A DNA stretch of 64,000 bases from assembly GCA_001683735.1 (NCBI GenBank), contig LUGG01000017.1, positions 186,001 through 250,000 on the forward strand, read 5' to 3'. Origin of the DNA: Grifola frondosa (taxonomy: Eukaryota > Basidiomycota > Agaricomycetes > Polyporales > Grifolaceae). The first letter of the stretch is position 1. Every line of letters starts with the position of its first letter. A model generated the notes under the pieces. The model saw nothing but the letters and a program-made list of their open reading frames with translations, searched no databases and had not been told where the DNA came from. Shown one piece after another: positions 39,931 to 64,000 of this stretch. The translations under genes and the position numbers were made by a program.

Positions 39931-39991
39931 AACACAGATCAATGTGTGGCTCAGTTTCACATACGCGGAAACACACTGACCTGCGTAGAGA

Positions 39992-40195
39992 TTCAGTTCG
40001 CAAGATGCATCTTGCCGGTATAATGCTCCTCGGCAGGATGCATCCCGATGGAGTACCCACCAAGGCCTAATTTGAGTGATCAGATGACAAGATGCATCCG
40101 GATGCCCAAATGCATCCGGATATAAAATGACATCTAGCGGGTTCGAACCGACAACCTCAAACTGAAAATGGGTGATGCTCCAACTGCACCATATA
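39992..40195 (+). repeat. Left terminal inverted repeat of the giant element
   Basis: The outer 157 bases pair with 57,464-57,620. Mismatches lie at the 11th-13th base (AAG against GGA) and at two positions near base 130. It contains four copies of the GATGCATC-type motif and a tRNA-like module on the minus strand. Confidence 0.9.
40130..40195 (-). ncRNA. tRNA-like module in the left inverted repeat
   Basis: On the minus strand TGGTGCAGTTGGAGCA resembles a Pol III box A/D-arm, and GGTTCGAACCC about 35 bases further is a perfect box B/T-loop. The anticodon stem between them pairs poorly, so this is a tRNA-derived or tRNA-like sequence rather than a functional tRNA. Confidence 0.4.
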
Positions 40196-40260
40196 CCAAT
40201 ATTTTATTTCAATTCTACATATAATACATACACATTTTCTTTGCCACTTTGAATCAATCC

Positions 40261-40530
40261 AAGATGCATCCGAGGCAAGATACATCCTACAGAGGGCAAG
40301 ATGCATCCCAGCCTCAAGTGCCAATTGACGCGTCGGGTTCATTGAGCGCCCAAGGCGGCTCTATCAGTTGAAGATCCTTTTTGAGTCCCATCCAGGGAAA
40401 GATACATCCCACAGAGGGCAAGATGCATCCGGGCCTCAAGTTGTCTTTTGACGCGTCGGGTTTGTTGAGCGCCAAGTTCTCGATACGTTAGAGGCGGCTT
40501 CATCAATGAACTTCAGATCATTTTCGTGTC
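40261..40530 (+). repeat. Subterminal tandem unit with AGATGCATCC and GACGCGTCGGG motifs
   Basis: Two imperfect units of about 120-135 bases start near 40,276 and 40,398. Each contains AAGATACATCC, GAGGGCAAGATGCATCC, GACGCGTCGGGTT, TTGAGCGCC and GGCGGCT. GACGCGTCGGG recurs near the other end at about 55,487. They look like transposase-binding arrays. Confidence 0.7.
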
Positions 40531-41074
40531 TTTTTCATCTTAACAAAGGGCTTGAATTCTGTGTGCTCTTGACAATACAATTTTTTGATGTAAATTTCAT
40601 GCATTTCCTCTAAGTACTTAATAATAGTGCCTACAAGAAACTCAACAAGCTACGCAACTAATTTCCATCTCCACGGGGGCTGAATGGTCGTGGCGCACGC
40701 ACGAAGCTCGCCCGGGTGTCGCACTGTGGCAGGTAGCGGCAGCAAGGCGTGCCGCATCAGCTTCGATGGAGGGCGCATGCAGTCCGTGCGTGGTAGGCAG
40801 GGACCAGCTCCGTAGAGAACGGAATGCCGCCACAACCACCCGCGTTTCCGATGACCAACCGCGATGGTGGGAGCGTCATCTCGACGTTGCCCGCAACACA
40901 AGGCCCGCTGCCAAACGGAACGCAGCTAACGGCCTTACGGGACCGGGTCCTTCGGCGGGAGTTTCTGGCGGAGGAAGGCCATCGTCGCAAAGTCAAGGCA
41001 TGCCGCAGAAATTTGATTGCCATGGTACCTTAAGAGTATAGATGCAGTGAATTTCATGTATTATATCACGAATA
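40531..41074. other. Subterminal non-coding stretch
   Basis: GC-rich between 40,660 and 41,030 with overlapping open frames on both strands and no motif. It lies downstream of the transposase stop. I see no gene that I can support. Confidence 0.45.
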
Positions 41075-44000
41075 TTAGTGTCTAATCCAAGTCCATCCCG
41101 TCATCCACTCCCAGATCTGCCAGAGCACCACGCTGACATCATCTTCAGTGTTGTCAAGACACTCCGGTAAGTAGTGTCGACTCACCGTATCCACTTTGTC
41201 CACGAAATGATCACATCCGGCTTCTAATAACCTCAAATAACGGTCAGCCTGTCTATGAATTAATTCATCATTAATTCAGGCCTGCAAACAGGTGCAAACG
41301 CACTTACTTTCGAGCATATGCCGCTTCGCCCGGCAGACCCAACTGGTCCGCCGCATCGGCCTTCTTGCTCCAGTGCCTCTTGAAGTGCGAGAAGAAGCGC
41401 ACCGTTCGTCGCATCTCTTCCTCCAATAAGCGGACCTGCTCGTCCCAGCGCTGCTTCAGGGCACTTGATCTGAACCAATGAACCCCAACGCTAAGAAACA
41501 TGTCAAACAATCTGTCACTCGGAAGTAACCATAGGCCGGTACCGTCATCAAAGAAATCCCTATATTTCTCATCCTGCTGCTCCTCCACGAACGAGAAACT
41601 CTCCCATATCCACGATGGAGTCTCCTTGCTCTGTCCGAGTTGCTGTTGGGCAGAATACAAAGTAAACTTGCGCACATCTTCTGGCTTGAGCTCACGATAT
41701 GTCCGATCTTCTCGTTTCATGCCTAGGGTAATCAGTGTCCGTCGCGCTCTGCGATACTTACTTGCTGCTTCGTTGATGGCTTGCTGTTTCTTTCTGATTT
41801 GATTTGTTGCTCTGGTTGTTGCTTTTTGGCCGGAAACATTGTGTTTTTGGATTTTGAAGGCTTCGTTGGTGATGATGTGTGTTCTGACTTCGTCGAGAGC
41901 TGCTTTCGCCTGAACTTGGCGTAAAGTCTTCTCCACCTCGACCACAGACACCATGCTGGCATGCCGCTGTACTCTGGGGTCGTAAGATGATGGCAGATCA
42001 ATTCGCACCGCATCGATTTCGTGCCACAAAGGAGGGCGAGGTGGCGGAGTTGGCGGATGACGCCGCTTGCCTGCTGTGGTGGTCGCTTGCCCGGTGTCGT
42101 CATCGGCAGGGTCGTCGACGTCAGGGGCGGCCAAAGGGAAGGAGGCGTGAACAGCATCTTGGACAGCCACAACGACCGCTGCGGCAGCCTCCTCCAAAAG
42201 GGGACCCACGTGCCGGTCGTACTGTTCCTTCCAAAGATCCAGCTTCTCTACGAATTGTTTTCGCTTGGCCGAAATATCCCCTCGCATGCTGTCCGTTCCA
42301 TCATCGCCCGCAATGTCCGTCAAGAGTTCGATCCTAAAATCCTTAAGCGTCAAATGATTCGTGAACGCAAAGAGACATACTTCAGGTCCTCCAATGCCAT
42401 CCCCTCTTCAATCACAGTCATCAGGACACATGTCGTCCTGCCGGATACTGTCGAACGCGCCGTTAACTGAGCCAGCAGTTGTGTCTGCGTAAGCGCTAGA
42501 TGTCCTGCATCAACAACGATTTCGAGAGATGGTGAAGCAAGGCACCGACCTGTGTCCTGGCGGGGCTCGTAAGGATTCTCCAGCCCCTTGTGGTTGTTGA
42601 TGTCCGTAACCTGCTTCAACCATGTGCGCTCGACGTCTTTCCATTCAGCAAGCTTCTGGGCCGCAACACTGGATTCAACCTTCGCAAGATGATCGCGAGC
42701 TACTTCTAATTGTTCAATGGCGATGACATATTTTGACACAAGTGTGCCGCCTTCATTCAACAGACGTTAGCGCCACATTCTGGATATCAAGGCGGACTTA
42801 CTCAATGCATGCGCCCGTCGCACGTTCATGTCGGAATGATGGTCGTTGATGATATCGTGACGATGTCCAGAGGTCATCTCTCTGTCCGACCGGCGAGCGC
42901 ATTGAGGGTTGCCCAAATTCGTTCCGGAGCTTCACCATCCGTCATACCCACGCCGGGCAGCCAGTAGTACGAAAACTTGTAGCGACATTGTGCATTGTGG
43001 GCTGGTAGGTGGAACTTGCCCACCGCAGCTAGCGTCCTCGGGAATATCTTATCCTTAATGGAAGCCAGGTCCGCCATATTGACGGCGATCCACTTCATGC
43101 GCTCGAGGAAGTGGATGCGATATTGGCAGTTGATGTCGTAACCCGAGACGTGCAATAATAATAGTATCCATCGCTGTAAGCCAGAAAGCATCGCGTAATC
43201 CACATAGGCAAACCTGTCCAGCAGCGTCCTATCAGTTAAAATAGCACGACTCGTACCGACTCGTACCTTTCTCCCTTCTGTAAATCAACGCCTCCGCCAG
43301 GGAGCACGAACATGTGCCGAGCACAAGACAGCCCGACAGTCCCCGAAATACGACCGCCGTATCGTCCATATCCCATCGCACCAAATTTATGACAGGTCGT
43401 TGGCTGGCGTATCCATGTAAGCTAACTTACGCAAACACACATCAATCACTCACCTCTTTCTGTGCTGGACCGAGTCGCTTTTCGAACTTGTCGAAATCAT
43501 GTTCGTTCGCGTAGTAAGCCGCACCCAACGTCAGAGGAAAATCGAGGGGATCCATCGGCTTCATTCTTTGGTTCTGTTGGAAGTTGCCATCCACCGTATG
43601 GAAAAGAGCATCTAAATATCTGACAATCCATCAGCGACATTTCATATTAGAATATTCATGACCTACTGTTCACCGCGCGGCCTGCTACGCCAATTTGGAT
43701 CCATATTGATGTCCGGTTGAGGGCATGCTGGGCATAGAATCGCTAAGGATCCCGCTTTCATATCCCGCCCCGGCTTCTCGCCCGCTCGCTTGGCCGCTCG
43801 CAAAAAAATGAACTCTCGCATCGTTGTAAGCAACTCCCTATATCGATCCTATGCCTGCGTTAGACCAAACATCAAACTCAACCCGATAGGCGCAACTCAC
43901 CGGCACGGTTTCTGGGAAAACATTATTCGTGGATCGCCGCAAAAAAGTGTAGTAGTCGTGAGCGTTGATCTGCGATTGGAGGGAAAGTAAATGGAAGTCT

Positions 44001-44817
44001 CGAAGCATGTCGACCACGAAAGCTGTCATGGGCTGTTCCCATGAGCCGGGGAATAGCCCAAACTGCAGAAGTTGGAGAGGCTGAGGAGTGGGAGTGACGT
44101 TGCCCTGTGACAGACAAGCACAAAAGTGCACGGACATCGTGTCGACACCATGATTATGGACAATCGTCATATGGCGAGGTTCCGATGAAGAACGCGGACA
44201 CTTGCCGCCGTCGTGTCCAAGAAAAATGACAAGCCCGAGATCGCCCAGCATGCGTCGACGCCAAAAGCGTTTCGAAGAATCCCATTCTTCCACACGATGA
44301 AAGGGATTGTGTTGATGGTCTCGCACGATGCACGCAAGACAGACTGTCGGCGGATGGTAGCAGTCGAAACATCGGTACATTGTCGCCGGCGTAGCCTCTG
44401 ATAAACCGCATGATGGACATTGGGGTGGCGTTGGGCCCGCTTCCCCCTCCAACCACGTTCCCAGCGCGCGAACGGCCCAATCTTTCAAGAACTGCGTCAT
44501 TCGCACCGAAGGAGGCTGCCAACATGCGTCATATCGAACCCGAACACATTCTACAAGTGACCGTAACTTACAATCGTGTTGTTAACCTTGGCCTTCTTCT
44601 TGGCCGGCAGGTCTTCCGATGCATGCTGGCTACTGACACCTTCAGGCGCGGAAGAAGGTCCTTCAACCCCGTTCTCTTGCTTTCTATCTCTCGCAGCCCA
44701 GGGATTTAGGGGTGTCCGTTGCGTGGATGGCGGTCCTTGGTTGGATGCGAATACATTGCCCAGGCCAAAAAAACCACGAGGATTTGCTTGAAGCTTAGAC
44801 TTTGGCTTTGGACCCAT
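41075..44817 (-). CDS. KDZ (Kyakuja-Dileera-Zisupton) transposase, CxC2 class
   Basis: DDE-type transposase that would excise and insert the element in the nucleus. Exons run from ATG 44,817 (MGPKPKSKLQANPRGFFG, a lysine-rich lead) to a stop at 41,075-41,077. The CxC2 zinc cluster is at about 44,430-44,250: CPSCGL, YRCFDC, CLAC, HNPFHRVEEW, then VIFLGHDGGKCP. Next come TAFVVDMLRDFHLLSLQSQI-like family sequence, LAILCPACPQPDINM, LDALFHTVDGNFQ, GLSCARHMFV with DLQKGERY, VDYAMLSGLQRW, VSGYDINCQYRIHFLERM, the WLPGVGMTDGEAPERIW block and GHRHDIINDHHSDMN. The C-terminal half has VHWFRSSALKQRW and ends WEWMTGWTWIRH. Introns are short. I see no stop inside conserved blocks, so it may be active. Exon borders were not all resolved. 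Confidence 0.85.
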
Positions 44818-45220
44818 GAGGCACGGAAGAAAGAATCGCTTGAAGTGTTACTAGGGATGGCTGAACGAATGGCGTGATGCGTGATGCGCGAAATCCGTGA
44901 CTTTGGAGGGTTAAGAAAATGGGCTGGAAGTGTTACGCGGAAATCTGTGACTTTCCGGAGTCCGTATTACGAGAGCGAACGCGGCGTGGACGCGGAAATC
45001 CATGACGTTCCAATGTTGTCAATTCTCAGGAGCTGGGACGTGGCCGCGGGCCGCGTAGCATGGCATAGCATAGCATAGCAGACGACATGGTACAAGCAGC
45101 ACAAGTGCAACAACGGCTACGTCGGTACGAACTACTATACTCATAGTTTCGAATAGGAAGAGATAAGGACAGTTCCAGCGCGATGGCCAAAGGCACGGCG
45201 TGCAAACGATGCGGTCCTCC
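44818..45220. other. Intergenic, transposase promoter side
   Basis: No gene. Contains a short GCATA-type tandem (about 45,058-45,080, GCATAGCATAGCATAGCA) and repeated TGACTTT-GGAG pieces. It separates the transposase start from the 3' end of the next minus-strand gene. Confidence 0.45.
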
Positions 45221-46061
45221 TCACTCTTCTGCATTGTAATATGACGGAAGGTGCGTGTAACTGCGCATAAACTTGCTCCACTGCAACTGAACGTTAGCAA
45301 TCGTCAATCAGACAACCATTATTACTCACAGGCAGTGCTCGTGCGCGTGCATAGCGCACAATTTTGAGCAAGTTCATGTCGAGGTCCTGAGGGTCAGCCG
45401 TCGAGGCCATCCTTACCATCTTCGAAATTTCCTCGAAGGCATAGTCGTGTGTGACACGCTCCTCGCAGAAGAAGAGGAAAATCTGCGCAAAACTATGGAG
45501 GAGTGAACGTTCCAACGACGACGTAACGCGAACCACATCCGGGCTGTCGAGGCGAGCCATGACTTTGCCCACTCAATCGAATAGCCCACGTTTCCTCTCT
45601 CAACGGGCATGGGAAACTGAAAATAAGTGAGTACAAGCCGTGGAGACGAGCATTAGAAATATGCATACCAGCCGTTCCTGGCGAGGAAGTTCTGGGGGGT
45701 AATGTACTAACTCGACGTAATACTGCACCGAAAGCGAGCCATCCATATGCCTCTCGTGCTCAACGCGCATCGCAAGGCCCTGGGATGCGTCGGGGGAGGC
45801 GTCAGGTACTCTCTCGGGCTCGATCCGAAGCGCGAAGCCTTGGGAAGCGGTGACAGTGGCGCTGGATGCAACAGCGGAGGGAGCGGAAGCACAAGGAATG
45901 GCAATCGTCACTCCATGAACGGAGTTCGCGATGTGGAGGTGCAGAGTGGGCTGGGGGGGCTCCATCGGAGCAGGAGGCGCGGTCGTTTGAGTAGACACAG
46001 ATTTATACGGAGCGCGGGTTCGACGACTGGCACCAGCATCCGAACAGCCAACGGGGGCCAT
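45221..46061 (-). CDS. Small unrecognised cargo gene
   Basis: ATG 46,061 opens MAPVGCSDAGASRRTRAPY. The first exon carries two similar tandem blocks (GFALRIEPERVPDASPDAS and GLAMRVEHERHMDGSLSV) and ends VHYPPELPRQERL. After an intron near 45,670-45,570, a helical stretch reads VMARLDSPDVVRVTSSLERSLLHS, FFCEERVTHDYAFEEISKMV and ends WSKFMRSYTHLPSYYNAEE at the stop 45,221-45,223. No known domain. Same strand as the transposase, 400 bases upstream of it. The internal repeat of about 24 residues is the only feature I can name. The middle splice site is uncertain. Confidence 0.5.
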
Positions 46062-47074
46062 TGCAGGACTCAACAGCGAATGGAAAGTGAATGCAGTGAA
46101 AGCAAGCGGCCCGGGCAAAAAGACGACGGAGGAAAACCTGGAAGCCGGGGGGTTGGAAGTGGCCAAAAAGTTGATCCGAAGGGATACGAGTGGCTCCACA
46201 GTGGGCGAAGCCCACTGGAGCGCGACTCGAATGCGATGAACTCGACGGTAACGCTTGTGCGCCCGGAGTTCATCGGTCTTGAAGAAGATGGCGGCAGGGT
46301 TGAGCGCAGACAGACGTCGACAGAGACACCGCCCGCGAACAGACAGGTGGCGGGCGCTCAGGCGGGGATTGGAACAATTCCCACGCACGGACCTTCCAAG
46401 CGCGCATCAAGGTTTGCCACGTCACACTCCTCCTGTCATCCATCGCCCGCCCCTCTCCCTTCCGTCCAATTCAAGTAAGTCCCGCCCCTTTTGTGAAGGC
46501 CCACACTGACTGCTCGCAGCATCGCGGCGTTTTATTCTTCCACAGGACTACACGCAAGAGCGTCTGTGCGAAGGGAGCTCCAGCTACCCAACGCCGCGCA
46601 ATCCATCCTGAGCGACAGCATCGTTTGCTGTTTGCCGGGTGTTGCTCTCCTCCGACCTGGACGACTCGACCTGGACGACTTATCAGCATTTCCTTCCGGC
46701 GATCTCACCTATCCTCCCTACGTGCCCTTTTCTTTGCTTTGCTGCAGCGCTTCTTTTGGGCTGTTCTCTCTTCCGCTGTCGTTCTCCCCAGGAGTGTGGT
46801 ACGTGTGGTGGTGATATCACAAGGTACGTCTTGAATTTCGTTTGCACACATGTCACGCTCATTCATGCAACATTGCCTCACCTATGCACGCGTCTGTGTC
46901 CGTAGTTAATATTGTTACCTGCTGTCCCATACCAGATTTTCATAGTTGGCCTGTATCCTGTATCCGGCTCTTGATTTCGAATAGAAAATCTTAATTTGCA
47001 CGCCGTTGTACGTAGGCCTTCAGCTCGATGCGATCACCAGTAGATGCTGACACAAAAATGAAAAAAAAAACAGC
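46062..47074. other. Divergent intergenic region
   Basis: Lies between the minus-strand gene and the plus-strand 726-aa gene. Open frames on both strands (46,003-46,900) look like compositional shadows in GC-rich DNA. It should contain both promoters. Confidence 0.45.
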
Positions 47075-49305
47075 ATGCCTCGTCCGGAAAATGTTATGGA
47101 GCCCCCTGGACCGCGGCCGACCACTTGGCTCGGTGGCGGGCCCCCGTCGCAGGCCCCCGACGGCACGCTTGTTTTGAAAAAGAACGCGAAGCTCAGTAAG
47201 TGGCTCCATCGTACCGGTCTAGCGGGTCGCTAAATTGTTTTCCAGAGCGCAGCCAGATCCTCCATGCATTCGACGCGCTCGTTGCAGCAGAGGCGAGTAG
47301 TTCGGGTGCAATCTGGACGTCGCCAAACCAGACGTGGGTTCCACGATTTCCTGTGGCGCGTAACGGTGGTATCGACACCATGGAGGATGGACGTTGGGGC
47401 TATCATGAGTTTTCTCGGTGGCCGCAGAATTTTGATTTCCGTTCGTTGTACCACGCTTGCATTCCCGCAAAGCCCTCCCCCGACGGCCCGACGGAGGTAT
47501 TTTTCCGTCGCATTCGTGATGAGGATTTCGAGGCCGATCGTAGTCTTGACGGCTTGGGTTTTTTGCGACCCGCGTTTATGGCTGAACTCTCTGTTGGAGT
47601 GGAAAAAGTTATGCGGCGTTGGGAAGTCTCCGGGCTCCGAAGGCCCAAACAGCGCTATCCGGGAGAAAATCTGCGTGCTATCCTCATCAATCTCCTCGAT
47701 CGTCTTCGATTGCTACCCGTCCACCTCGAGACCGCTATTTGTGTTGCTGCGCATGTACAACGTACGGCATTGGAGCTCGCAGGTTTCACAACTTGGATTG
47801 AAATCATAGCCGATCGCTGGGATAATCACAGTTTCGTTGCGCGTGACGTCTTGCCTGTACTGGGAGCATTCGCATTGAGCGCTGCAGTTGCTCAGAAGTT
47901 GTATCGAGTCGGTCTTCCGGTGTGGCTCATTCAGTGGCACACCCCTCGTCTTACTATCTACGATGTAGTGTCAGCGTCGTCTCTCCCGTTCGACATGTCG
48001 ACGAATCCTGGCGGTGCGAGGTTCGTCACTTTGCGCGGAGATGAAACTTCCCTCATGAATCAAGCGGGCAACTGGCAGCAAATCATGTGGAATGCCTTGG
48101 TTCATAACATTGGTGATCGTCGTCTCGGGTCCTTACTCCCTGCAGTTGAAGAGACAAAGAAGCGCAAGCACGAGCATGATGATAGGTCTGAGCCTCCAGC
48201 CAAGAAGACGCATCGTGGCAGGCGGGGCAGGAAGTCAGCTCGGCCTGACGGGAAGGCGAATGAAGGAGATGACCACTGTGACGTACCAGCGGACGCAGAG
48301 GCTCGCGATAACAACCGGGGTGCGCTTGCTATCGTGACGCATCATCCTACGGTTCAACACTATCCTCCTCCTTCAGTCATCGGTATCTCTCCGCCCTGGA
48401 TCTCCGCGCTCCAGCAGGTCTCTCCTGTACCCTCCCCACCTGCGTCCCACAAGTACTTCTATCCGCCTCCCTTCCTTCTACAGCTGATGCCATCAGCGGC
48501 CCCCCCGACCACCGCAGCGCATGAGAAGGTGGGGCGATACCTGCACAATCTCGCGCGCATCAGGTCTTTTTGCCGTCAGCGCTTGATCGACCCGTCTATA
48601 GGAGGGGCGCCGCTCACTCTCGTGGAATGGCGTGAAGCTCTGTGGGGTGCATACGAATACGATGCTTTTGCTCCGGCCCCTGCGGGTGCATCCGAGAGGG
48701 GCCAGAAGCGCCACACCGCTAAGCTTGATATGCGTCGTTTGTGCGCGAAAGGTGCTCGTCTGACTTCCTATCAAGACTCAGACCAGCCCGCGCTCGCTGG
48801 AATCACTGTCACGGCAGAGAGCGCTCGCCACGATCCGCGTGTTCTGGCTCATCTCGCATGGGAGTCGCATGAGATCAACTTCCGCGCGGAATTGCTGGCA
48901 CTGGATGAAGTGGAGATGGACCGGTCATCATGGACGGATCTCATTCGTTGGGGTAGAGAGATGGATGTTGCGCGAGTGTGGTGCCCAGCAGGGTCGGGTA
49001 TGAGCATTGTGCCCGTGGAGTGGAATACCAATCCGGCGGCGTATCTCTGGCACCCTCCAACGACTGTGGGTTGGGAACGAGGGAGGTTTCACTTAGCTGC
49101 CCTCGTGCACGTCTTTGCCTCTTGGCCCAGGGTGCCACGCCATCTCGTGCTGAGGTCGGACGACATTCTCACCTGCTCGGCGGAGGAACATGCCCGCATT
49201 CAACGGGATGCGGTGACCTTCTACACCGAATCGTTTGTGAGGGTCTTCAGACGTTTGCCCATCCCTCCAGCCTTCATGCTTATGCCGGACGTTGCCCCGT
49301 GTTAG
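47075..49305 (+). CDS. 726-aa conserved-looking cargo protein, function unknown
   Basis: Two exons, 47,075-47,195 and 47,246-49,305, with a 50-base GT-AG intron; ATG 47,075 gives MPRPENVMEPPGPRPTTW and the frame joins exactly. Unrecognised by domain. It is rich in W, with WGYHEFSRWPQNFDFRSLY (about residues 110-130), then a long helical middle (residues about 160-330), a basic cluster EETKKRKHEHD and KKTHRGRRGRK that looks like a nuclear localisation signal (about 365-400), a proline-rich linker (about 430-480) and a second folded half with LVEWREALWGAYEYD (about 535) and LVLRSDDIL. Strong codon-like composition over 2 kb and no interruption argue for a maintained gene. Inside the giant element and near the transposase, it is a candidate accessory factor for transposition or cargo. 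Confidence 0.75.
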
Positions 49306-49724
49306 TCAATTTGTCTTGAGCAATGACACTGTTCTTTCCTTAGTGATCGCCCCTTCGTACTGTACGAGTAGATGGATCATCGCGGACTTCTTGTGCTCCC
49401 CTCCCCCATGCAGTTCTTTTTGCTTTCGTCGTTTTCAATTTGCTTCTTCTACTTGGTCTTGGGATGCGTGCGTTCAGCGTCGGCACACTTGGGCGCTCGT
49501 GCCGTGGATTTGGCTCGCCTGATCGGAAGAATTGCTCTGTGGCATCGTCGCTTGTATGATTTTTGCAATTTACTGTGTATACGATTATCCCCTCTGGAGC
49601 GCTGAGTTTTTCTCTGAGGGTAGGTAAGTGTAACGTTCCGTTAGTCCACTTGCAAGCGTCGTCGCATCAACAAGTCAGTATGTCACCGTTCTCAAGTCTG
49701 CACTGGTTGACTATCTTCACAGGG

Positions 49725-51586
49725 ATGGGGAAGACAAAATGGCGACTTGCAGAACTCGAATTCTTGCATCAGTGCTGTCAAACTCCCGATATCAAGAGCA
49801 CTCTGGAAGAAAAGGGCGGTGGGGTCAAGGCAGCGTTGTTACTCACTGATCGGTATCACGCTCACTTTGGTGAGACAGCATTTCCAGCGGAAAGTGAAGA
49901 GGCGTTCGAAATGCGCCGAATGGCCGCCAAGAGGAAGAATCGCAAGACCTTGGTGCGGGAATTAGCTGAGACGGCGGACGAGGCCCAGCTCAGACGGTCA
50001 GAAATTCCTACGGTAATTGTTACTCGTCGCCAGAATGAAATTATGACTGACATGCAGGTCCACAGCGCATTCGTAACTGGATGAAGAACACTATCGCCAA
50101 GAAGAAGAAACCTGTGGAGCTGCCTGTTCCTCCCGTTCCGTCTGCGCGGAGCACGCCACGCAAAGTCACTGCCCTCGATGTGTACAAGTCCACCCATCCC
50201 GACCGTCCCAAAGTGGAGATCATCGAAGGACGGGATGGCCGCATGAGAGCGAATCTCGGCAAATTTGCTTCCGAGGCCAAGGTTCGTTTCGAGCAACTTG
50301 ACGACGCGGACAAGGCTGCTTTGGACGCCGAGGCACGCTCTCGCTCAGCCGGCCAAGTCAATGAAGGAGGACTTCAAGACGATGATGAACGGGCGAGGTA
50401 ATATATCCGTAGGCTGGCATTCAGGCACTGACGAACCATCGATTCACAGGAAATCGGCAGCGCTGCCTCAGTGGATGGAGGCTACCGCTAAGAGCTGGGA
50501 GGCACAAACGGGCTGGATAGGTTATTTCATCTTAGGTGGAGTGGACGCAGCCGGGAAATTGCAGGCATATGCGTGAGTTGGCTACAAAGAACTTACGTCC
50601 ATATCTAACGTTCCTTTGGATAGTACCAATACAGGAATAGACTCTACTGGTGCCAACTTCGAAGAACGGTTGGCTCGCGTTTTGAGATGGGATAAAGACG
50701 ACATCCGGACCAAATTCTGGGAATATTTGGCCGACGTGTTCAAACGTGAGCCGCATCGTGTATAGTTACGTATGTGTACTCACCATCTGGATGTAGGACC
50801 TATGCCCGTTGCAGATGATGCAATGAAACCGCTGACAACCGTTCGTTCGCAGTCACCTCCCGGTTGTTCTCCCGGGGAAACGCACGGCCCCCAAACCGTA
50901 GTTGAGACTACTTCTCAACAACTTGCTCATTTACTTACGCGGCGCCTCGCGTTGCCTCTCCGGCGATCCCTGTACCAAGCGTGGTCGGTACATCAGGCGC
51001 TTCTCCACTCACGCCTGCGCCTCCTTCCTCGACACCTGTTTTGTTTCTTCACACTCCCACTTCGGCAATTCCTGCACCAAGCGCGGCCACATTACCCATT
51101 GCTTCTGATGGCATGAAGAAGAAATCGCGCCAGAAGGCGAAAAAGTCGAAGAAGTCGAAGACGTCGACGGCGGCGGATAAAACGGCGATGGGTGAGTTAC
51201 ATTGCTTGCCCCCCTCCGAGCGTCTTCCAGAAAGCCAATTCCTGTGTAGAAATCACACAGCGCATGAATGCCTCCGCTAGAGTAGCCCGAGCCAAAGTTG
51301 CCACTACTAAGATTGCCGTCGCAAAAGCTGTCGCGGCTGAGGTCGCAGGAGCAAAAGCTTCACGCTCAGTAGAGTCTCAAATTCTGCGGTCTTCGCGAGA
51401 GCGTCGCCCATCTAGTCGGTCGCTGGGTGAGGACCCGTAAGTGTGAATTTATTCTGTGATTTCCCTGCATATTTGAACTCTGGAGACGTGACTAGGCTCA
51501 TGACTACTGTCGCTCGTGCCAAGCGTCAGCGGACGGATGGTATAGAGGACGCCAGTGCTCTGAAGAAGCGCAAAACCCGTCAGTAA
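49725..51586 (+). CDS. HMG-box-like, lysine/alanine-rich cargo protein
   Basis: ATG 49,725 opens MGKTKWRLAELEFLHQCCQ. Exons: 49,725-50,012, 50,066-50,397, about 50,450-50,575, 50,625-50,744, 50,797 onward, 51,240-51,438 and a last exon ending KKRKTRQ at 51,584-51,586. A segment VTALDVYKSTHPDR, then NLGKFASEAKVRFEQL and DADKAALDAEA has the spacing of an HMG box (Y...L.....W/F..L...DK..Y/L..A). WMEATAKSWEAQTGWIGYFILGG follows, then a proline-rich linker, KKKSRQKAKKSKKSK and an alanine/valine-rich heptad-like run. Around 50,900-50,980 the frame changes without an obvious intron, so either I missed an intron or there is a lesion. Nuclear DNA-binding role is inferred. Confidence 0.6.
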
Positions 51587-52020
51587 ATTGTAGCGACGTT
51601 GTAGGTGGTCCAGCGGTTCCTTCCTTAGAACTTCCGTAGTTACTTCACTCGTCTCGTACCATAGTTCGTACGCTGGAACGAATAAATCCGAGGGATCGTA
51701 TTACGCCGACACCGATTTGCAAGCATACACAGGATGAGCAAACGTCTGCACATTCCTGCGCGATCGGGACTGTTCATCCGGCAACTGCGATCTACGGGAG
51801 GTTACGCCCTTTTTTTTTAAATTGCGTTTCACCTCATGTGCACTCTGATAGGGCTATATTCACCCGTCCTTTTTTTCCGCCATGGCCGTGGAACGGCGTC
51901 CGGCGCAGCGGCGACGTTAGCTTCACATTTGCGAGTTATAGGCTTGGAACTCGCTTTCTACCAAAGCCCCGCCCGCCCGCCCTCCACCCTCTTTACCAGT
52001 GTCACAAACTTGTACTTGCC
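51587..52020. other. Intergenic
   Basis: No gene recognised. Contains a poly-T run (about 51,811-51,820) and two further T-rich tracts. Probably 3' UTR of the upstream gene and promoter of the next. Confidence 0.4.
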
Positions 52021-54735
52021 ATGCCTGTCTTGCGCAGATATCCGAACATTGTTCGCAACCAGAACTCTCACCTTTCTGCAACCTGTGCTCCATCGACCCT
52101 GCCGCCGTTACTAACGCCGACCTCGAAATCTCAATATTCAGTCGCTCTTCGCGCAAAATGCAGGGCAGTTGCTGATCCCAACCCCCCAAGCCGCCTGCTG
52201 CTTGTCCCCTGTGCTGGCACCCGAACTCCATATTCAGAGGCATGACCTACCAGCTTAATCGGGGCGGGTGGTTCTATTTCAAGGTGTGTAAATTCGCACT
52301 GGGAAGAGCTGACTACTTACGCACAATCTCGAGCAGTGCGGCACGGACGGTTGTAGCTACTTCGTTTATCCCGCACAGAAGATCCCCTCGCCCGTGGCCA
52401 ATGCGGCCATTGAGGACATTCGGCTCAGCGAGGTGATCAATGTTGAGTGCTACAACGCGGCGAAGAAGGCAGCTACCGAGGATTCGAAGCTGGAACGCGC
52501 TGCCAAAAAAACTGCTAAGGCTGCGCTGATGGCGAAGTCGCAGTTTGAGAAGGCAGAGATTGCCGCCGCATTGGCGAAGGACAAACTGGTGAAAGCTGAG
52601 GCGAGGAGGGAGAAAGCGAGGGAGAAGACGGAGAAATCATTGGCGGCACAAGAGGAAGCTGACCATTTGATCGCGGAACGGCTCCAACAGGCACTGGACG
52701 AGGAGGTATGCAGTCTCATCATGCAATGTCCGTGATAAACTTGCGAACCAACGGACTTCACCACAGGGATCTCACCTCAAAAGGGGTCGTGCATTCTCCG
52801 ACAGCGAAGATGCCCCTCCGTTGAAGAAGTGGAATTCAGGGGTCTGGACATCAAGCTCGCAGGTATGTAGTGCCTTGACACTCGTGATGCGGTACTTATA
52901 AGTTACAGACTACGGCGTCCTCGAGCGGTCGAGTGCTCCCTGCGTCCCAATCATTCGACTTAGAGTGGCTTGACGACTTGGACGATGTCTTGGCCAACCA
53001 CCCCGACAGCCCTCTGGTCCCCACGCCATCTGAGCTACCCGCAACGCAGGTCCGTCCTCTCCAATGTCGCCTTGATCGTTATGCCTTATCACATGTACAG
53101 GAGCGTATGACATCTTCGAACCAGCGGGCATTGTCTGCGTCTCAAAGCCCTGAGGTACGTCTTCTCTGCCCTGCTTCTTCGTGCTCACTAATGGTCAATC
53201 AGCCGTGGAACACTCTCGTGTCTAGTTCGGGAAGATCGGACACTCGTCCTTTGCTCGCCAAAGAACAGGTGCGCGTGCAGCTTCCATTGGCTTCTGTCAT
53301 CCTTATCCAATCATTCAGGCGGCAAAAAGGGTCGCGCCCCATCCCAAGCACCTTCCCATTGTCGCCGCCGCCTAGTGCGCCACGTGCGCCCCGCCGACGA
53401 TGACGATTCCGTCTTCACCTCCATTCCACGACCGATAGGCCCACCCGTCACTATGAAGTCGTCTGCGGTCCACCGGGTCATACCCCGTATCCTTTAAAAG
53501 TTGGAGGCAAGAGCGGTGAGAGCACTCACCATATCCAGGCGCTCTCTTCTCCCGCAAGCCCGACCGTTCAACGCCCGAAGCCACGTCCCTGTTACCACGG
53601 CGTGGTCCGCGATGTTGCGCTTCGTGTACCAAGCATTCTACCCGCGGTGGTGTCTCCGTCGAAGAAGGTCACGTCTGTTTTCAAGCGGTCATCATCTCCG
53701 ATTTGGATCAGCAGCGACTCCGACGACGATGCCGGACTCGCCGTCAAGCACGATGCTGCGAGCCCGGAAGTACCTCCACCCCCCTTCGATATCTTCGCCA
53801 TTCCAAAAGCCGCAGCCCAGAAGCCGCTGCCTCCTGTGCCCAAGATTTCCCCGTGGGCGGTGCGGTGAAGCCGCTGGATCTGGCTCGAAGTTGGCGAGCC
53901 CTTGCATCAGAGAAGGGAGTTGAGGAGACAAAGAAAGATGAGGAGACGGACGCTGACCGGCGATTACCCGGAGATACCGACTCCAGTGGAGGGGAACGCA
54001 AGGGGCCAAGCCAGCTGCAGCGGAAGCCTTACGCTTTCCGTGTTTTGCCTCGATCCTCGCCTTGGTCTTCCGAGGCTTCCGACGATGAAGCGCGTCCATT
54101 GGAGGTTGTTGCACGTCCTGACCCTAACGAAGATGTATTCGTTCATGACAACATCCTCGCTCCGGACAGCGGAGAGGAGTCGGGAGATGTCGATGTTACT
54201 CCTACAGTGAAGAAAGAGGCTGAAGTCGGAGACGCTGATGACGAGGAAGGCCAAGATGATGACGAAGATAGCGAAGATGACGCTAGCATGGCCAATGGCG
54301 ACGCTGACTCCACTTCTGACGACGGATCCAGCTACACCGTAGCGATCTGGTTCTGGCTTCAGGTAAGCCTCTATATACTTACACTCAATGCAATCGCTCA
54401 CCGCCCTCAAACAGCCGGATACCGAGGTCGATTATTTTTTCCTGACCGTTCCGGCCGATGGCTACACAACCATGGCCCAGCATGAAGCCATGCTCGAACT
54501 CTTCAAGGATCACGACGCTGTCGCTTACGAACACTGGGACACTAACACGAGCAGCTGGAAATCACGGAGATTGAGTGATCCGTTATGGGTCCATCGCGAG
54601 CTTCGCAAAGGCATGCTGTTGCGGCTGCCCCACGTCTTCCAACCGTTAGACTTCTGGGAGATCGGCATGCGCATGGAGTGTTATTGCCGCCATGAACTGT
54701 CTTCCGTTGGTGACAAGGGCAAGGCCCGCGCGTGA
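52021..54735 (+). CDS. Acidic cargo protein with a GRF-like zinc finger
   Basis: Near the N-terminus, CPLCWHPNSIFRG and NRGGWFYFK join across an intron (52,283-52,336) to QCGTDGCSYFVYPAQK: the C..C, GRxFY, C..C.YF layout of a GRF-type zinc finger, which binds single-stranded nucleic acid. A long basic/alanine coiled-coil-like helix follows (KKAATEDSKLERAAKKTAK to LDEE, 52,440-52,705). Then come several small exons with SDSEDAPPLKKW and FDLEWLDDLDDVLANH, an acidic region (DDEEGQDDDEDSEDDASM, about 54,236-54,290) and a C-terminal domain VDYFFLTVPADGYTTM to VHRELRKGMLLRLP ending GDKGKARA at 54,733-54,735. The true start and the exons between 53,280 and 53,920 are unresolved, since frames there do not join cleanly. 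Nuclear role inferred. Confidence 0.55.
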
Positions 54736-56560
54736 AATGAGCAGTTGTATAGTAGGTCTCGTTTCTCCATAGCAGTATTCCAATTTATCGAATTTTAGGT
54801 ATACAGCAGTAGCGTACTTTCTTGAGTGCCTGTAAGCTGCGTACGCCGTTTGCTCAATTCGAGATGTCTACAATTCACATATCACAAGGACGATTCATGG
54901 GGCGCGCGCACCCCTAGCGTAACAGGTATGTTCATTCAGTTATCTAGAGCTGCGTCAACGCCCGCCACCGCAACGCCTACCACCGGTTCCTCGTCCACTC
55001 CCGCCGGCTCCTCCTCGTCCTGGGTATCGCCTGCCTGCTCAACGCCCGCGGCCTCTTCCTCGTCAATGCCCGCCGCCTCGTCCACGTCTTGGGTATCGCC
55101 CGCCGGCTCCTCCTCGTTCTCGTCCTCTCTCGCCGGCTCCTCGTCGTCCTGGGTATCGCCCGCCGCCGCCTCCTCCTCCTCGTCAATGCCCGCCGGCTCA
55201 ACGCCCTCCTCCTCATCCTCGTCTTGGGTATCGCCCGCTGGTTCCTCCTCGTCCTGGGTGTCGCCCGCCGGCATAACGCTTGCGGCATTTTCTTCGTCAA
55301 CGCCTGCCACCGCCGCCGCCTCGTCCTCTCCCGCCGCCGGTTTGTCGTCATTATTCATATTGTCTTCCATTACTCGTCGCCAGGGAGGACTCGAAGGGAA
55401 GCGTGATGTAGCGCGGGGTGATGTATGCGGTATTGTGAAGTAGAAATTGAAGTTTCCCGCATGAGCTGCACACTTGCGTCCCGACGCGTCGGGCGCGCCC
55501 GCCGCTAGTGTCGAACGGAGACGTTGATTAAATTATTTATTATCTATAGCTACGTGAGCTCCCCGCCGTCTGCTGGTCCTCGTCAACACCCGCCGCCCAC
55601 CACGCTCCCGCTTGCCGACCGCGCGCTGCTCGCGGGGCTCGGGTACAAGGACAAGCTCGCCGCCTCCGACCGCGCCATCATCACGAAGGCTGAAATCTTC
55701 GGCCATGATCTGGAGCTGGACGGCACACACAGACAAGATGACGAGGAGCAGCAGCAGCCACCCCACGCTGACCTAAATCACAACGTCGGCGCCCTCCGGC
55801 ATGAATGGGTTTCCGAACGAGAGGTTCAGCGAGGAAGCGGTTCTGGGACGGGTGCTGCGAGCATGCGTGTGGAGAGCACGAGCGTGTGCTGGTCACGATA
55901 GCGGGCCGTGTTAGGGACGCCGCACGTGTGAGCGGGGAGACGGGCGTGGGGGCGGCAAGATTGTACATGTGCGGTGAGTCTTGCTGAGCATCTACATCGA
56001 GGATGCTGTTCGTCATGCCCGCCGCCTCGCCCTCTTCAGCAGCAGCTGCCGCCTCTTTGACGTCAATGCCCGCCGCCACCTCCTGGTCCTTGTCAACACC
56101 CGCCGCCATGTAGGAGACATCAGCATATGGCAGTATGCGACGGACGTGGAGTATGTTCTGTTCGAGTTCGCAGTCGTGGTACGTGTCCCCGTCGTTTGCT
56201 CCTTTGTGGATTTGAAACATCCGCAGACATTGTCGACTGACGACCGTCCCGTCGACGTCTGCACAGGACAAGAAACACCCGTATGAACCTGATGTTCGAA
56301 GGATGGGCAATGCATATGACCCAAGGTATGCACCCACTGTATTCATCTCCCGTGCGTGTCCTGCGCAGTACGCTGATCGATCGACCATGGAGAAAGTCGA
56401 ATGGCAGAGGCCGTGATGAAAGCAGGCTCCGCAGGCCGTTACGAGTCGCGCACAGTCGACGGAGCGGTGCCTTCGCTGTGGATTAGTGAGAACGAGCTCG
56501 GGAAGACCTGTTCGCGCAGCTAAAGCAGGCGACGGTGCCATGGCCCGAGTACGAGTTTAC
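54736..56560. other. Non-coding or decayed region with acidic minisatellite
   Basis: Contains the tandem array at 54,960-55,370, smaller islands of the same repeat at 55,570-55,600 and 56,015-56,105, and GC-rich open frames on both strands without motif. No gene supported. Confidence 0.45.
54936..55370 (-). repeat. Coding-capable minisatellite, acidic repeat
   Basis: Tandem units of about 24-48 bases. The minus strand is open for 144 codons from ATG 55,370 (MEDNMNNDDKPAAGEDE) and encodes repeats such as PAGDTQDEEE, PAGIDEEEE and PAGVDEE. The plus strand reads serine-rich repeats (PAGSSSSWVSPAG). Whether either is translated is not clear; no introns or neighbours decide it. Confidence 0.6.
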
Positions 56561-56589
56561 TTTGCCGCAGCTGTACTACCCGCCACGTC

Positions 56590-57140
56590 TGGAAGCGGTG
56601 TCTCTGCAGAAGTTCTCGTTGGTGATGCTGGGACCGACGGTGATGCCTCTGATCGGATTGCTGCAGACGCACGGGACATCGCAGTCTGTATAATAGGTAG
56701 ATACACGTTCGAGCGGCAGCTTGTTGAGGAGGGTATGTATCCGCTATCTATCCCGACCCACCGACCGCTAATGTCCGCAGGCTTCTTCGGCGCGCAGCAA
56801 TTCTCCACCTCATACCACCAGCTCATCCAGGTCGAGGACACGGGCTTAAACAGGATGCTCGCGCCGTACAACTCGTGCGCGAACGCGAACAACGCCATCG
56901 CGGACTCATTGGCACCGTGTACACGACGAACTGGACGGCGGTGTATCTCGTGCGCATGCTGCTGCACATGCAGGCGTGCCGGCGCGGCGTGACGCTCGAC
57001 CTTGCCAGCGTGCAGGCGATGCAGTAGCTCTGCACATACGAGACCATCACGCTCGGGTACTCGGCATTCTGCGCGCTGTTCACCGAGGACGAGCTGCACG
57101 AAAGACACGCAGTGCACATGCACCGTTTGCGTCCTCGTAC
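56590..57140 (+). pseudogene. Histidine acid phosphatase (phytase-like) relic
   Basis: Blocks in family order: RIAADARDI (about 56,650), GFFGAQQFSTSYHQLIQVEDTG and NRMLAPYNSCANANNAIADSL (56,780-56,920). In the next frame follow GTVYTTNWTAVYLVRMLL and LDLASVQAMQ, an in-frame TAG (57,025-57,027), and LCTYETITLGYSAFCALFTEDE. The LAPYxSCxNA and CxYET...G.S.FC.LFT signatures are those of secreted histidine acid phosphatases of basidiomycetes. The N-terminal RHGxRxP catalytic motif was not found. A frameshift and a stop make it non-functional. It lies 280 bases inside the right inverted repeat. Confidence 0.65.
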
Positions 57141-57269
57141 CCCCTCATGATTGTAGGTATGACGGACACACCTGCGGCAGTGACGTGCCGCACCGCACAT
57201 GTAGGAGGACGAGATCAACCGAATGGTCGAGGAGGCACGGCGCTATGGTATGAGGAGCAATTTTGGATG

Positions 57270-57345
57270 CGCGACGGATGTATCTTAACTTGTCCGGATG
57301 TATCTTGATTCGCCCGGATGCATCTTGCCTTCAATTGGATGTATG
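57270..57345 (-). repeat. Right subterminal GATGCATC array
   Basis: Four GGATGTATCTT/GGATGCATCTT-type sites at about 57,276, 57,296, 57,316 and 57,336, in opposite orientation to the left array, i.e. both arrays face the centre of the element. Confidence 0.75.
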
Positions 57346-57414
57346 TTGTCTTGAATACTTAGAGGAGAGGAAAAATGCGTATGTATTAAATTTAAATTCA
57401 GAGTATTGTAACAG

Positions 57415-57485
57415 TCATTTGGTGTAGTTGGAGCATTGCCTGTTTTCAGATTTGAGGTCGTCAGTTCGAACCCGCTAGATGTCAT
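57415..57485 (+). ncRNA. tRNA-like module in the right inverted repeat
   Basis: TTGGTGTAGTTGGAGCATTG (box A-like) followed by CAGTTCGAACCC (box B-like). Mirror copy of the module at 40,130-40,195, more diverged in the middle than in the two boxes. The anticodon stem does not pair well. Confidence 0.4.
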
Positions 57486-57620
57486 TTTACATTCGGATGC
57501 ATTTGGGCATCCGGATGCATCTTGTCATCTGATCACTCAAATTAGGCCTTGGTGGGTACTCCATCGGGATGCATCCTGCCGAGGAGCATTATACCGGCAA
57601 GATGCATTCCGCGAACTGAA
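57415..57620 (-). repeat. Right terminal inverted repeat of the giant element
   Basis: Reverse complement of 39,992-40,195; the outer 157 bases align without a gap with five mismatches. It ends CGAACTGAA at 57,620. Confidence 0.9.
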
Positions 57621-57665
57621 GTCTCTCACACCCACCCCGACACAACACATCGAGGCTAGCCACTC

Positions 57666-59506
57666 ATGTCCACCTCACAGGGCAGCGGCGTCGAAAACGC
57701 TAGAGTTCCGCCTTCTCCACAGGGTGCTCCAATGTCGAAGCGACCACGGATGAGCGTCAAGCCAACGGTTCGACCACCACAGTTTATCTCGCCTTTCGTG
57801 ACTTCTTCTGGGGCTAGAAATCAGCCTGCGGCAGTGCCAGTTGGACAAGCAAGAGTTTCCGCACCATCAATGCACTCTGGGACTCCTGCGAGGGGTGTTG
57901 CAAACAGCGTGCATCGTCCGACGGTTCCAGGTACGGCTGCAAGTGATCATGTTATTTGTCGAATGAAATTTTCACGCGAGAAATGGTAGGATTAGCCAAG
58001 AACACATCCGATTATATTACAGCACTACATACCGCTGTAGACACCCTGAAGGCGAAGGCCAAGACCCACGACGAAGAAATTGACCAGCTGTCGAAGGAAT
58101 CGGAAAAGCTGATTGTTAACACCGAAGAATTAGCTGAACAGAATAACGACATACTGGCGATACTGAGGGATATTTGGGTGCAACTTGAAGGTGTCCAGTC
58201 TCAAAACGAGACCCTTCAGATTCGTGTGGACAACCTCGAGATTGCGTTGAAAAATGTGCTGATGGTGACCCATCGTAATGATGACGATGTCGGCAATACT
58301 ACTCCCGAAGGTGGCACGAAAGAAGATGGTGATAGCGGTGGGTTGGGCAGACGAAAGGCGTCGTTGAATGTGAGCTGTGTCCCGTTGCATCAGGATTGAG
58401 CACTCACCGCCATATGCACATTCTGAAGGCACTTGTACGCATCTCCCTCCATCAGCTCATGGGCACTACGAAGAACGGAAATCCACCAGAACCGCTCAAG
58501 AATGGCAGGTTCTGGACAGAGGAGGATGTTAACTCACCGGATCGACTCCTGCGTCCAAATTGGGATAGCTGGGCCGACAATCGTTCTGTGTGGCTCCGTG
58601 AGGTGACGCAGCTGATCCGCGACAGAGGTCCACACTGGAGTAATGAGATGACCGCTGAGGAGCTCAGAGATGTTCCGATGCAGACGCTGCACGAGGCAAT
58701 CAAGGCATTTTTCGAGACAACAGCCAAACGCTACAAGATCAACATGCATAAGACGGAAAGTGAGCGCCATGAGAAATCGCGGGTAAACAGACGAAAAGCG
58801 CGGAAAAGGACGGTGCGTACCGCAGCGGACAGCCTGAATATACAAGCTAACAACCCTAGCGCACGGTCATCCAGAAAGCAGCAGAGCGTACTGCTCATCG
58901 TGAGAGCATTGCGGAGTTGCGAGACAAGAAGTATGACTTCTTGTTCACATGGGCGTATCAGTCCACGGATGAGTCCGATCTCGAGGGAGCCATTGATCCA
59001 GGGACAGATAATGAGGTGCAGAACGAGGTACCCATGGTAGTTGGCGGGCGCAGGCCCTGGATATCGCGTGCTCCGGCATATCGCGCTGATGGGGTAGGTC
59101 GCCGGGCATGGTGTCTCGAATCTTTGATTTACTGACCAAGTTCCCATCGCAGATAAACAATTTGCTTGATCGCCTTGATGTTACAATCACAGCCATGCGC
59201 GAGGTGAATCCTGTTCACGGAAATCACTATCATTCACGTCGGCGGGGTACTTCACGTACCTCTGAAGAATCAAAGCTCCCGACGGTGCGCACCACTAAAG
59301 AAAAGGACGGTCAGACAAAACCTGCGGTCAAAATCTCACGCACCATGATTGATCCAACATGGCTTCAAGCGCTTGCTGCCAAGTATGACAAGCCGTCATT
59401 CATAGCTCCGGAGGAGAGTGACACGAGTGCGGAGGTTCCTTATGAAGAGGATAGAGAGCAGGGTCAACGAGATCCTAACATTGATCCATTACTGTATGAC
59501 TTGTAG
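57666..59506 (+). CDS. CACTA-element companion protein (TnpA-like role inferred)
   Basis: ATG 57,666 opens MSTSQGSGVENARVPPSPQG, a low-complexity lead. After an intron near 57,930-57,985 comes a coiled coil (VDTLKAKAKTHDEEIDQL and NETLQIRVDNLEIALKN), then, past another intron, a conserved-looking block FWTEEDVNSPDRLLRPNWDS to FFETTAKRYK (58,510-58,735) and a basic run RVNRRKARKRT. After that KYDFLFTWAYQS, INNLLDRLDVTITAMREVNP and a C-terminus TWLQALAAKYDKPSF to DPNIDPLLYDL at 59,504-59,506. It converges on the Tnp2 gene 66 bases away. In fungal and plant CACTA elements a second gene encoding a DNA-binding, coiled-coil protein is usual; this is the basis for the role. No stop interrupts the blocks. 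Confidence 0.7.
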
Positions 59507-59572
59507 AAATGGCAGCGGAGAATCTTGGGACTCACCGAAAATGACATGTATCCAAAATCTTGTGAGATAGCC

Positions 59573-63544: not shown

Positions 63545-64000
63545 GTCGACGACGCGTTACAAGGGAGGATAGTAAAAAATCGGACGTAGTTTTATTGTGT
63601 TGCCATCAGCGGGGGGTCTGAGCCTCGTTTGACGTATAAGTACACGACGCGTATACTTGATCAAGGTCTAACGCGCGTCGACGCGCATATCACGTGTTCA
63701 GACAAACATTTTCTTTCTGGCGAATTCACGGCAAAAGGTGCTCGTAGGAAATCTCCGGAATATTAACGGTAAATCTGACATATTCCTCCAATATCCTGCT
63801 GGCAAATTTGGCCTTGATGTGCGGTGGTGACCGGAAGATCTTACCGCATTTGGATTAGTTTATATTTTATCCATCGTATTTCGAACAGAATCCCTTCGTA
63901 GGACTAATCGGGATGCAATACAAGCATTCCAGACCAGATTTAAAGCAGCGACGAGCGAAGAATGAAGGCACACCGGCGAGTAAGCGGAGGTACAGAATGC
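63545..64000. promoter_or_regulatory. Upstream region of the CACTA transposase
   Basis: No gene. Contains ACGCGT-type motifs and a 14-base palindrome GCGCGTCGACGCGC at 63,673-63,686 that could be part of a subterminal binding array. No CACTA-type terminal sequence was seen before the window ends. Confidence 0.45.

What the first reader, a model, noticed from the sequence alone, without database searches (positions are those of the whole stretch)
39992..57620. Giant KDZ transposon of about 17.6 kb with a multi-gene cargo
Two inverted ends match at 152 of 157 aligned positions, enclosing a CxC2-class KDZ transposase and at least four other genes or relics. The near-identity of the ends and the unbroken transposase blocks suggest recent mobility. 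The set of accessory genes (726-aa W-rich nuclear-type protein, HMG-like protein, GRF-finger acidic protein) may be a transposition module or true cargo. KDZ elements in Agaricomycetes are known; this gene set as a unit I do not know as described.
Basis: partly seen in the sequence, partly recalled or inferred. Interest (0 to 1): 0.92.

Follow-up and report, generated by a model that had tools for sequence, protein, structure and literature searches.

The report
Giant four-gene KDZ transposon family, maitake
A 17.6-kb jumping gene in the maitake mushroom genome belongs to a multi-copy group in which a KDZ transposase travels with the same companion genes, which suggests that the companions help it move rather than being chance passengers.

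Summary
The element spans 39,985-57,627 (seven bases beyond each reported end); its arms are 96% complementary over 170 nt. The host is Grifola frondosa. The 169-bp end has 15 genome matches: six full elements and three cut by contig ends, none solo. More divergent elements share the termini GTAGAGATTCAGTT...AACTGAAGTCCCTC. Of 20 copies with both ends, 14 have exact 7-bp target duplications and three near-exact ones.

Of 77 KDZ loci, 25 have the W-rich gene and 27 the HMG-like gene on the divergent side (30 have either); GRF-gene matches fall in 12 elements, always downstream. Twenty other KDZ loci lie near TET/JBP genes; none has both. The W-rich gene is under purifying selection (dN/dS 0.13). 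So the gene set is a conserved module, not random cargo; what it does is inferred.

Corrections: the window's right flank duplicates another locus (probable misjoin); this copy's transposase is frameshifted near 42,883; copy-specific indels and the uniform middle of the copies are unreliable. 'HMG' lacks profile support; 'GRF' rests on motif reading. Kyakuja's 7-bp duplication is met, its CA..TG termini and lack of TIRs are not. New variant of a known kind.

The parts
39985..57627 (.). Whole element, 17,643 bp, ends GTAGAGA... and ...GTCTCTC
   Evidence: Alignment borders of the copies
39978..39984 (.). Left target duplication GACCTGC; its partner is found at contig C3, not at the right end in the window
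57628..57634 (.). Right flank ACACCCA, identical to the flank of the C7 copy (probable misjoin or recombination)
39985..40161 (+). Left long terminal inverted repeat (weaker similarity to 40238)
57451..57627 (-). Right long terminal inverted repeat (weaker similarity to 57372)
40004..40429 (.). Left subterminal array of GAT[AG]CATC[CT] (8 copies)
57277..57576 (.). Right subterminal array of GAT[AG]CATC[CT] (5 copies)
41304..44817 (-). KDZ transposase gene with introns (start ATG placed by eye); frameshift near 42,883 in this copy; D, D, E residues at about 43589-43591, 43135-43137, 42931-42933
43919..44248 (-). CxC2 cysteine cluster (PF18803)
42883..43218 (-). KDZ domain, profile positions 97-197 (PF18758)
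47200..49305 (+). W-rich protein gene, 701-codon open frame; true start unknown
49725..51586 (+). HMG-like gene, exons 49725-50012, 50066-50397, 50450-50572, 50624 onward; joins agree with public protein A0H81_03518
52203..54732 (+). GRF-type finger (52203-52283 joined to 52337 onward), coiled coil, acidic stretch, conserved C-terminal part 54436-54636; outer limits uncertain

Best explanation
This is one copy of a group of giant KDZ-type DNA transposons in Grifola frondosa. A DDE-type KDZ transposase with a CxC2 zinc cluster probably binds the short termini and the subterminal GAT[AG]CATC arrays, cuts the element out and inserts it at staggered cuts that leave 7-bp duplications. Three further genes transcribed away from the transposase (W-rich, HMG-like, GRF-acidic) are a conserved part of the transposon and are most likely helper proteins, for bringing ends 15-18 kb apart together, for DNA bending, target choice or escape from silencing. 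Shown here: shared ends, 7-bp duplications, fixed gene order in many divergent elements, conserved catalytic residues, purifying selection on the W-rich gene. Inferred: the binding sites, the cut-and-paste chemistry and the job of each helper.
For: 15 end matches, none solo. 14 of 20 two-ended copies with exact 7-bp duplications, 3 near-exact. Termini 29 and 31 times in the genome against 2 and 2 for the reversed control. KDZ and CxC2 domains; D/D/E conserved (57, 60 and 61 of 61 aligned proteins carry the residue). Gene set collinear in elements with W-rich identity 37-53%. 30 of 77 KDZ loci have the W-rich or HMG-like gene divergently placed, where chance gives about 2% per locus; L end within 5 kb in 22 of these 30 and 0 of the other 47. 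dN/dS of the W-rich gene 0.126 and 0.136 with third-position excess, also without CpG changes. Subterminal motif only near the ends.
Against: No transposition or expression was observed and no empty site in another strain was seen. The window copy has a frameshifted transposase and mismatching flanks. C32 has no target duplication. 4 of 29 L ends lie more than 30 kb from any KDZ match and 7 of 31 R ends lie more than 12 kb from an HMG-like match; 3 W-rich and 3 HMG-like loci have no KDZ match nearby. Five KDZ loci with the HMG-like gene show no W-rich match, three with the W-rich gene show no HMG-like match. Only the W-rich gene was tested for selection. No functional domain was recognised in the three companions.
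Confidence: 0.75

Rival explanations
1. The companion genes are passenger cargo with a host function (or none), carried along by an ordinary KDZ transposon.
For: No recognised transposition domain in the three companions; TET/JBP KDZ loci and 27 further KDZ loci do without them.
Against: Same order and orientation in elements whose W-rich proteins are only 37-53% identical; almost all matches lie beside KDZ genes (W-rich 25 of 28 merged loci, HMG-like 28 of 31); purifying selection on the W-rich gene within the element group.
Confidence: 0.15
2. The companions are an anti-silencing system that takes the place of the TET/JBP dioxygenase found at the other KDZ loci of the same genome.
For: TET/JBP at 20 KDZ loci, W-rich or HMG-like at 30, both at none. 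Copies differ mainly by CpG transitions (176 of 203 transitions in C32, 37 of 40 in C9), which suggests methylation of these elements.
Against: Mutual exclusion is also expected if the two gene sets simply mark two transposase lineages. The CpG decay shows that the elements are not well protected. No enzyme-like domain was found.
Confidence: 0.2
3. The window copy itself is an assembly chimera: left part from a locus split between C15 and C3, right part and flank from the C7 locus. The transposon group is real, but this copy as drawn is not.
For: The end of C15 equals C7 over 8,118 bases compared (about 107 of them element end), 0 mismatches, 3 gaps, up to the contig end; the end of C9 equals C3 over 9,658 bases, 0 mismatches, 4 gaps; C39 equals C37 beyond the element. 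Target copies re-pair across contigs: GACCTGC C15 with C3, AACAATC C50 with C37/C39.
Against: True recombination between copies, or two nuclear types in the sequenced culture, could look alike. It would not alter the conclusions on the group.
Confidence: 0.8

Closest known systems
Kyakuja TET+ transposons of Agaricomycetes (Kojima 2025, PMC12730594; parts 1-4 of 7 and passages seen, not the supplements)
   Same: KDZ transposase; 7-bp target duplications; Agaricomycete hosts including Polyporales; further gene beside the transposase
   Different: Kyakuja-1/2_LB are described with CA..TG termini and no TIRs; this element has G..C termini, short imperfect inverted ends in all copies seen and a 177-bp TIR in this family; no TET/JBP gene but W-rich, HMG-like and GRF genes
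KDZ1, KDZ2, KDZ3 of Cryptococcus neoformans (PMC12810828; passages seen)
   Same: Large KDZ elements (about 9-11 kb) with long TIRs (241, 139, 169 bp), shown to be mobile
   Different: CxC1 instead of CxC2 as the named cluster; duplications of 8 bp (KDZ1) or 4-8 bp; the passages seen name no companion genes like these
Zisupton (as described in PMC12730594)
   Same: KDZ transposase, TIRs, target duplications
   Different: 8-bp duplications
KDZ elements of Marasmius oreades (PMC8290104; passages seen)
   Same: KDZ elements of a mushroom with characterised TIR motif
   Different: Comparison not possible: the motifs are in a supplementary figure that I did not see
Starship giant transposons (passages on Tremella in PMC13066641 seen; the rest recalled)
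   Same: Large fungal mobile elements with several genes
   Different: Starships use a tyrosine-recombinase captain and carry variable cargo; here a DDE-type KDZ transposase with a small fixed gene set

Membership tests
KDZ superfamily | KDZ transposase domain | tested here: met
   PF18758 E 1.3e-22 over its cut-off
KDZ superfamily | CxC cysteine cluster before the catalytic core | tested here: met
   PF18803 E 4.2e-30
KDZ superfamily | Conserved catalytic acidic residues | tested here: met
   D, D and E present and conserved in 57, 60 and 61 of 61 aligned proteins; that they are the catalytic ones is recalled
KDZ superfamily | Multi-copy element with defined ends and target duplications | tested here: met
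   14 of 20 exact, 3 near-exact 7-bp duplications
Kyakuja (as in PMC12730594) | 7-bp target duplication | tested here: met
Kyakuja (as in PMC12730594) | CA..TG termini | tested here: not met
   Termini GTAGAGA...GTC[TC]CTC
Kyakuja (as in PMC12730594) | No TIRs | tested here: not met
   177-bp TIR here; short imperfect inverted ends in C6/C13
Kyakuja (as in PMC12730594) | Transposase inside the Kyakuja clade | not tested
   No labelled reference transposases at hand
TET+ KDZ elements | TET/JBP dioxygenase gene | tested here: not met
   Whole-genome six-frame search with PF12851: 22 matches, none on contig C15
Zisupton / Dileera | 8-bp target duplication | tested here: not met
   7 bp in the copies examined
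Starship | Tyrosine-recombinase captain | tested here: inconclusive
   No such family among Pfam matches of the frames scanned, but not every frame was scanned
   No Pfam match; best PDB profile match E 1.3, to T7 lysozyme
G-x-W/F-F/Y-x-K-C ... C-x2-F pattern | tested here: inconclusive
   Pattern seen by eye in C6 and, across a probable intron, in the window copy; no Pfam match; pattern recalled

The most novel reading that the evidence does not exclude
The W-rich, HMG-like and GRF proteins form an undescribed accessory complex, the W-rich protein with a fold not yet in the PDB, that lets one branch of KDZ elements move 15-18 kb of DNA and escape silencing, as an alternative to the TET/JBP dioxygenase of the other branch in the same genome.
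Probability: 0.2. Interest if true: 0.82.

Novelty: new variant of a known kind. Interest (0 to 1): 0.62.

Why it matters
KDZ transposons are common in mushroom genomes, but apart from TET/JBP their companion genes are little described. A multi-gene module with defined ends, target duplications and many related copies in one edible mushroom makes it possible to ask directly what a KDZ element needs to move a large segment, and whether this module and TET/JBP are two answers to the same problem. The case also shows that 15-18-kb near-identical elements can break or mis-join long-read assemblies, so single copies read from draft genomes can mislead.
Full report
What is there. The window is bases 186,001-250,000 of contig C15 of a 39.06-Mb, 64-contig genome. 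The host is Grifola frondosa: the HMG-like protein matches 'A0H81_03518 [Grifola frondosa]' at 100% identity over 77% of the query, on a contig of 2,745,113 bases, the length of C3. The element runs from 39,985 to 57,627. Its arms are 96% complementary over 170 nt. The 169-bp end has 15 matches in the genome: six complete elements (C15, C9, C7, C3 of about 17.6 kb; C32 of 20.2 kb; C14 of 26.7 kb with two insertions of about 4.5 kb) and single ends on C50, C37 and C39, whose contigs start inside the element. None is solo.

Target duplications. In C9 (TCGCAAG), C7 (ACACCCA) and C14 (AGGAACT) both flanks carry the same 7 bases. C15 has GACCTGC on the left and ACACCCA on the right; C3 has TCGCAAG and GACCTGC. 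C50 and C37/C39 carry the two copies of AACAATC. C32 has none. So the left flank of C15 belongs with the right flank of C3. The end of C15 copies C7 over 8,118 bases compared (about 107 of them element), without a mismatch, to the contig end; the end of C9 copies C3 over 9,658 bases, also without a mismatch. The simplest reading is mis-joining through the repeat; true recombination between elements is not excluded.

A larger group. A divergent pair, C6 and C13 (15.5 kb), shares the termini GTAGAGATTCAGTT...AACTGAAGTCCCTC and has duplications GAGGCGC and TACCCAT (read), with no long inverted repeat. These terminal motifs occur 29 and 31 times in the genome, against 2 and 2 for the reversed control patterns. 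Of 12 further facing pairs fetched, 9 have exact 7-bp duplications, 2 have one mismatch (C8, C19a) and 1 is offset by one base (C25b). In sum, 14 of 20 copies with both ends are exact, 3 near-exact, 3 not (C15 and C3, explained above; C32). Four of 29 L ends lie more than 30 kb from a KDZ match and 7 of 31 R ends more than 12 kb from an HMG-like match.

Genes. The transposase (minus strand, about 41,304-44,817) has CxC2 and KDZ domains and conserved D, D, E residues. In the window copy the frame shifts near 42,883; in C7, C14, C32 and C50 it does not. The W-rich gene (47,200-49,305) has 41 relatives at E <= 1e-5 and 30-36% identity; those with names come from Ganoderma, Dichomitus, Cubamyces, Lentinus, Trametes and Cerioporus (Polyporales by recall). 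The HMG-like gene (49,725-51,586) was modelled with introns, and the public protein has the same three joins that I modelled. The GRF-acidic gene (about 52,203-54,732) shows CPLC...GGWFYFK and CGTDGCSYF across a probable intron; the C6 copy reads CPTCGNGGK...GEWFFK and YCDWFSW. Pfam lists no match over its cut-off for the companion proteins scanned.

Module test. Whole-genome searches gave 128 KDZ matches, 89 W-rich, 97 HMG-like, 30 GRF and 22 TET/JBP; counts are lower bounds by the tool's own note. Merged, there are 77 KDZ loci. The W-rich gene lies on the divergent side within 25 kb at 25 and the HMG-like gene within 30 kb at 27; 30 have at least one, each in divergent orientation, where chance predicts about 2% per locus. 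TET/JBP lies within 12 kb of 20 loci (18 within 2.5 kb). No locus has both; 27 have neither. An L end lies within 5 kb downstream of the transposase in 22 of the 30 and in 0 of the other 47. GRF matches fall in 12 elements, each between the HMG-like gene and the R end; the query came from C6 and did not find the window family, where the gene was seen by translation and tblastx. Three W-rich, three HMG-like and five TET/JBP loci have no KDZ match within 25, 30 and 5 kb. The order is L end, KDZ<-, W->, HMG-like->, GRF->, R end. Some elements are longer because of insertions, for example C12 (32.8 kb) and C19b (34.6 kb).

Selection. Between related subfamilies (C6 against loci L067 and L068, about 91.5% identical) the W-rich gene has dN/dS 0.126 and 0.136; changes at codon positions 1, 2, 3 are 34, 17, 101 and 36, 20, 104. 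The excess at position 3 holds separately for CpG transitions and for other changes. C15 against C32 shows no such bias (3, 5, 4). The other genes were not tested.

Mutation pattern. Copies differ from C15 mostly by CpG transitions: C32 203 transitions (176 at CpG) and 24 transversions; C9 40 (37) and 2; C3 40 (37) and 1; C14 34 (31) and 3; C7 7 (6) and 4; C50 3 (3) and 1. That suggests methylation of the elements. Among C9, C3, C7 and C14, 4 of 823 CpGs of the core (42,830-53,300) and 59 of 590 outside are changed. The core boundaries were chosen after seeing the pattern. The middle is also nearly uniform in the old copy C32 (about 48-53 kb), so I suspect homogenisation by assembly, or gene conversion, and draw no conclusion. 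Gap runs between copies (42 C15-C7, 53 C3-C9, 57 C15-C9, mostly single bases) are far denser than in the duplicated flanks (3 and 4 in 8.1 and 9.7 kb), so copy-specific frameshifts may be errors.

Mechanism. Shown: shared ends, the 7-bp signature of staggered cuts, conserved acidic residues, conserved gene set. Inferred: cut-and-paste transposition, with transposase binding of the ends and of the GAT[AG]CATC[CT] arrays (13, 7 and 9 copies in C15, C6 and C13, all within 700 bp of an end). The HMG-like and GRF proteins would plausibly bind or bend DNA and the W-rich protein would bridge or regulate. An anti-silencing role is possible because these genes and TET/JBP exclude each other, but two transposase lineages would explain that as well.

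Relation to known elements. It is a KDZ transposon. By the description in PMC12730594 (parts 1-4 of 7 and passages seen) Kyakuja has 7-bp duplications, CA..TG termini and no TIRs; the first is met, the others are not, so I do not file it as Kyakuja. Its transposase was not placed in a labelled tree. Cryptococcus KDZ1-3 (PMC12810828, passages seen) show that large KDZ elements with long TIRs move. The best transposase relatives (62-54% among the first dozen) come from Heterobasidion, Gelatoporia, Obba, Lentinus, Auriscalpium, Ganoderma, Artomyces and Trametes (Polyporales and Russulales by recall); from rank 85 of the 120 listed, most are at 33-37% and from other groups, with exceptions. No report of this gene set appeared in the searches made; the founding paper was not available.

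Noticed in passing
window 57628-64000 and contigs C7, C3, C9, C37, C39, C50: Contig ends duplicate the flanks of other copies of the element without mismatches (C15 end = C7, C9 end = C3, C39 = C37): contigs C15 and C3 are probably chimeric at the element.
   Followed up: partly
G000 C6, C18, C38, C2, C14, C13, C64 and others: A second set of KDZ loci lies beside TET/JBP genes (18 within 2.5 kb), fully separate from the W-rich/HMG-like set.
   Followed up: partly
window 40110-40200 and 57410-57500: tRNA-like A-box and B-box sequences (TGGTGCAGTTGG, GGTTCGAACCC) inside the long TIR; ARAGORN and Rfam report nothing.
   Followed up: partly
C32 copy against window 47985-52985: The old copy C32 differs by 2-3% at its ends but is almost identical to C15 over about 5 kb in the middle: homogenised assembly or gene conversion.
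   Followed up: no
window 6451-8786 and 29352-31687: Direct repeat of about 2.3 kb at 91.6% identity; no ORF of 260 aa or more between 1 and 39,900.
   Followed up: no
window 2736-3188 and 24022-24537: Two fragments with sub-threshold similarity to fatty-acid desaturases (E 5.8e-4 and 8.6e-4), perhaps decayed duplicates.
   Followed up: no
window 54986-55322: Low-complexity tandem repeats of about 30 bp inside the right third of the element, with copy differences.
   Followed up: no
C2:21365, C3:112535, C16:698696, C28:44388 (L ends); C17:989960, C17:1041477, C12:1363797 (R ends): Terminal motifs without a KDZ (L) or HMG-like (R) match nearby: chance matches, relics or non-autonomous derivatives.
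   Followed up: no
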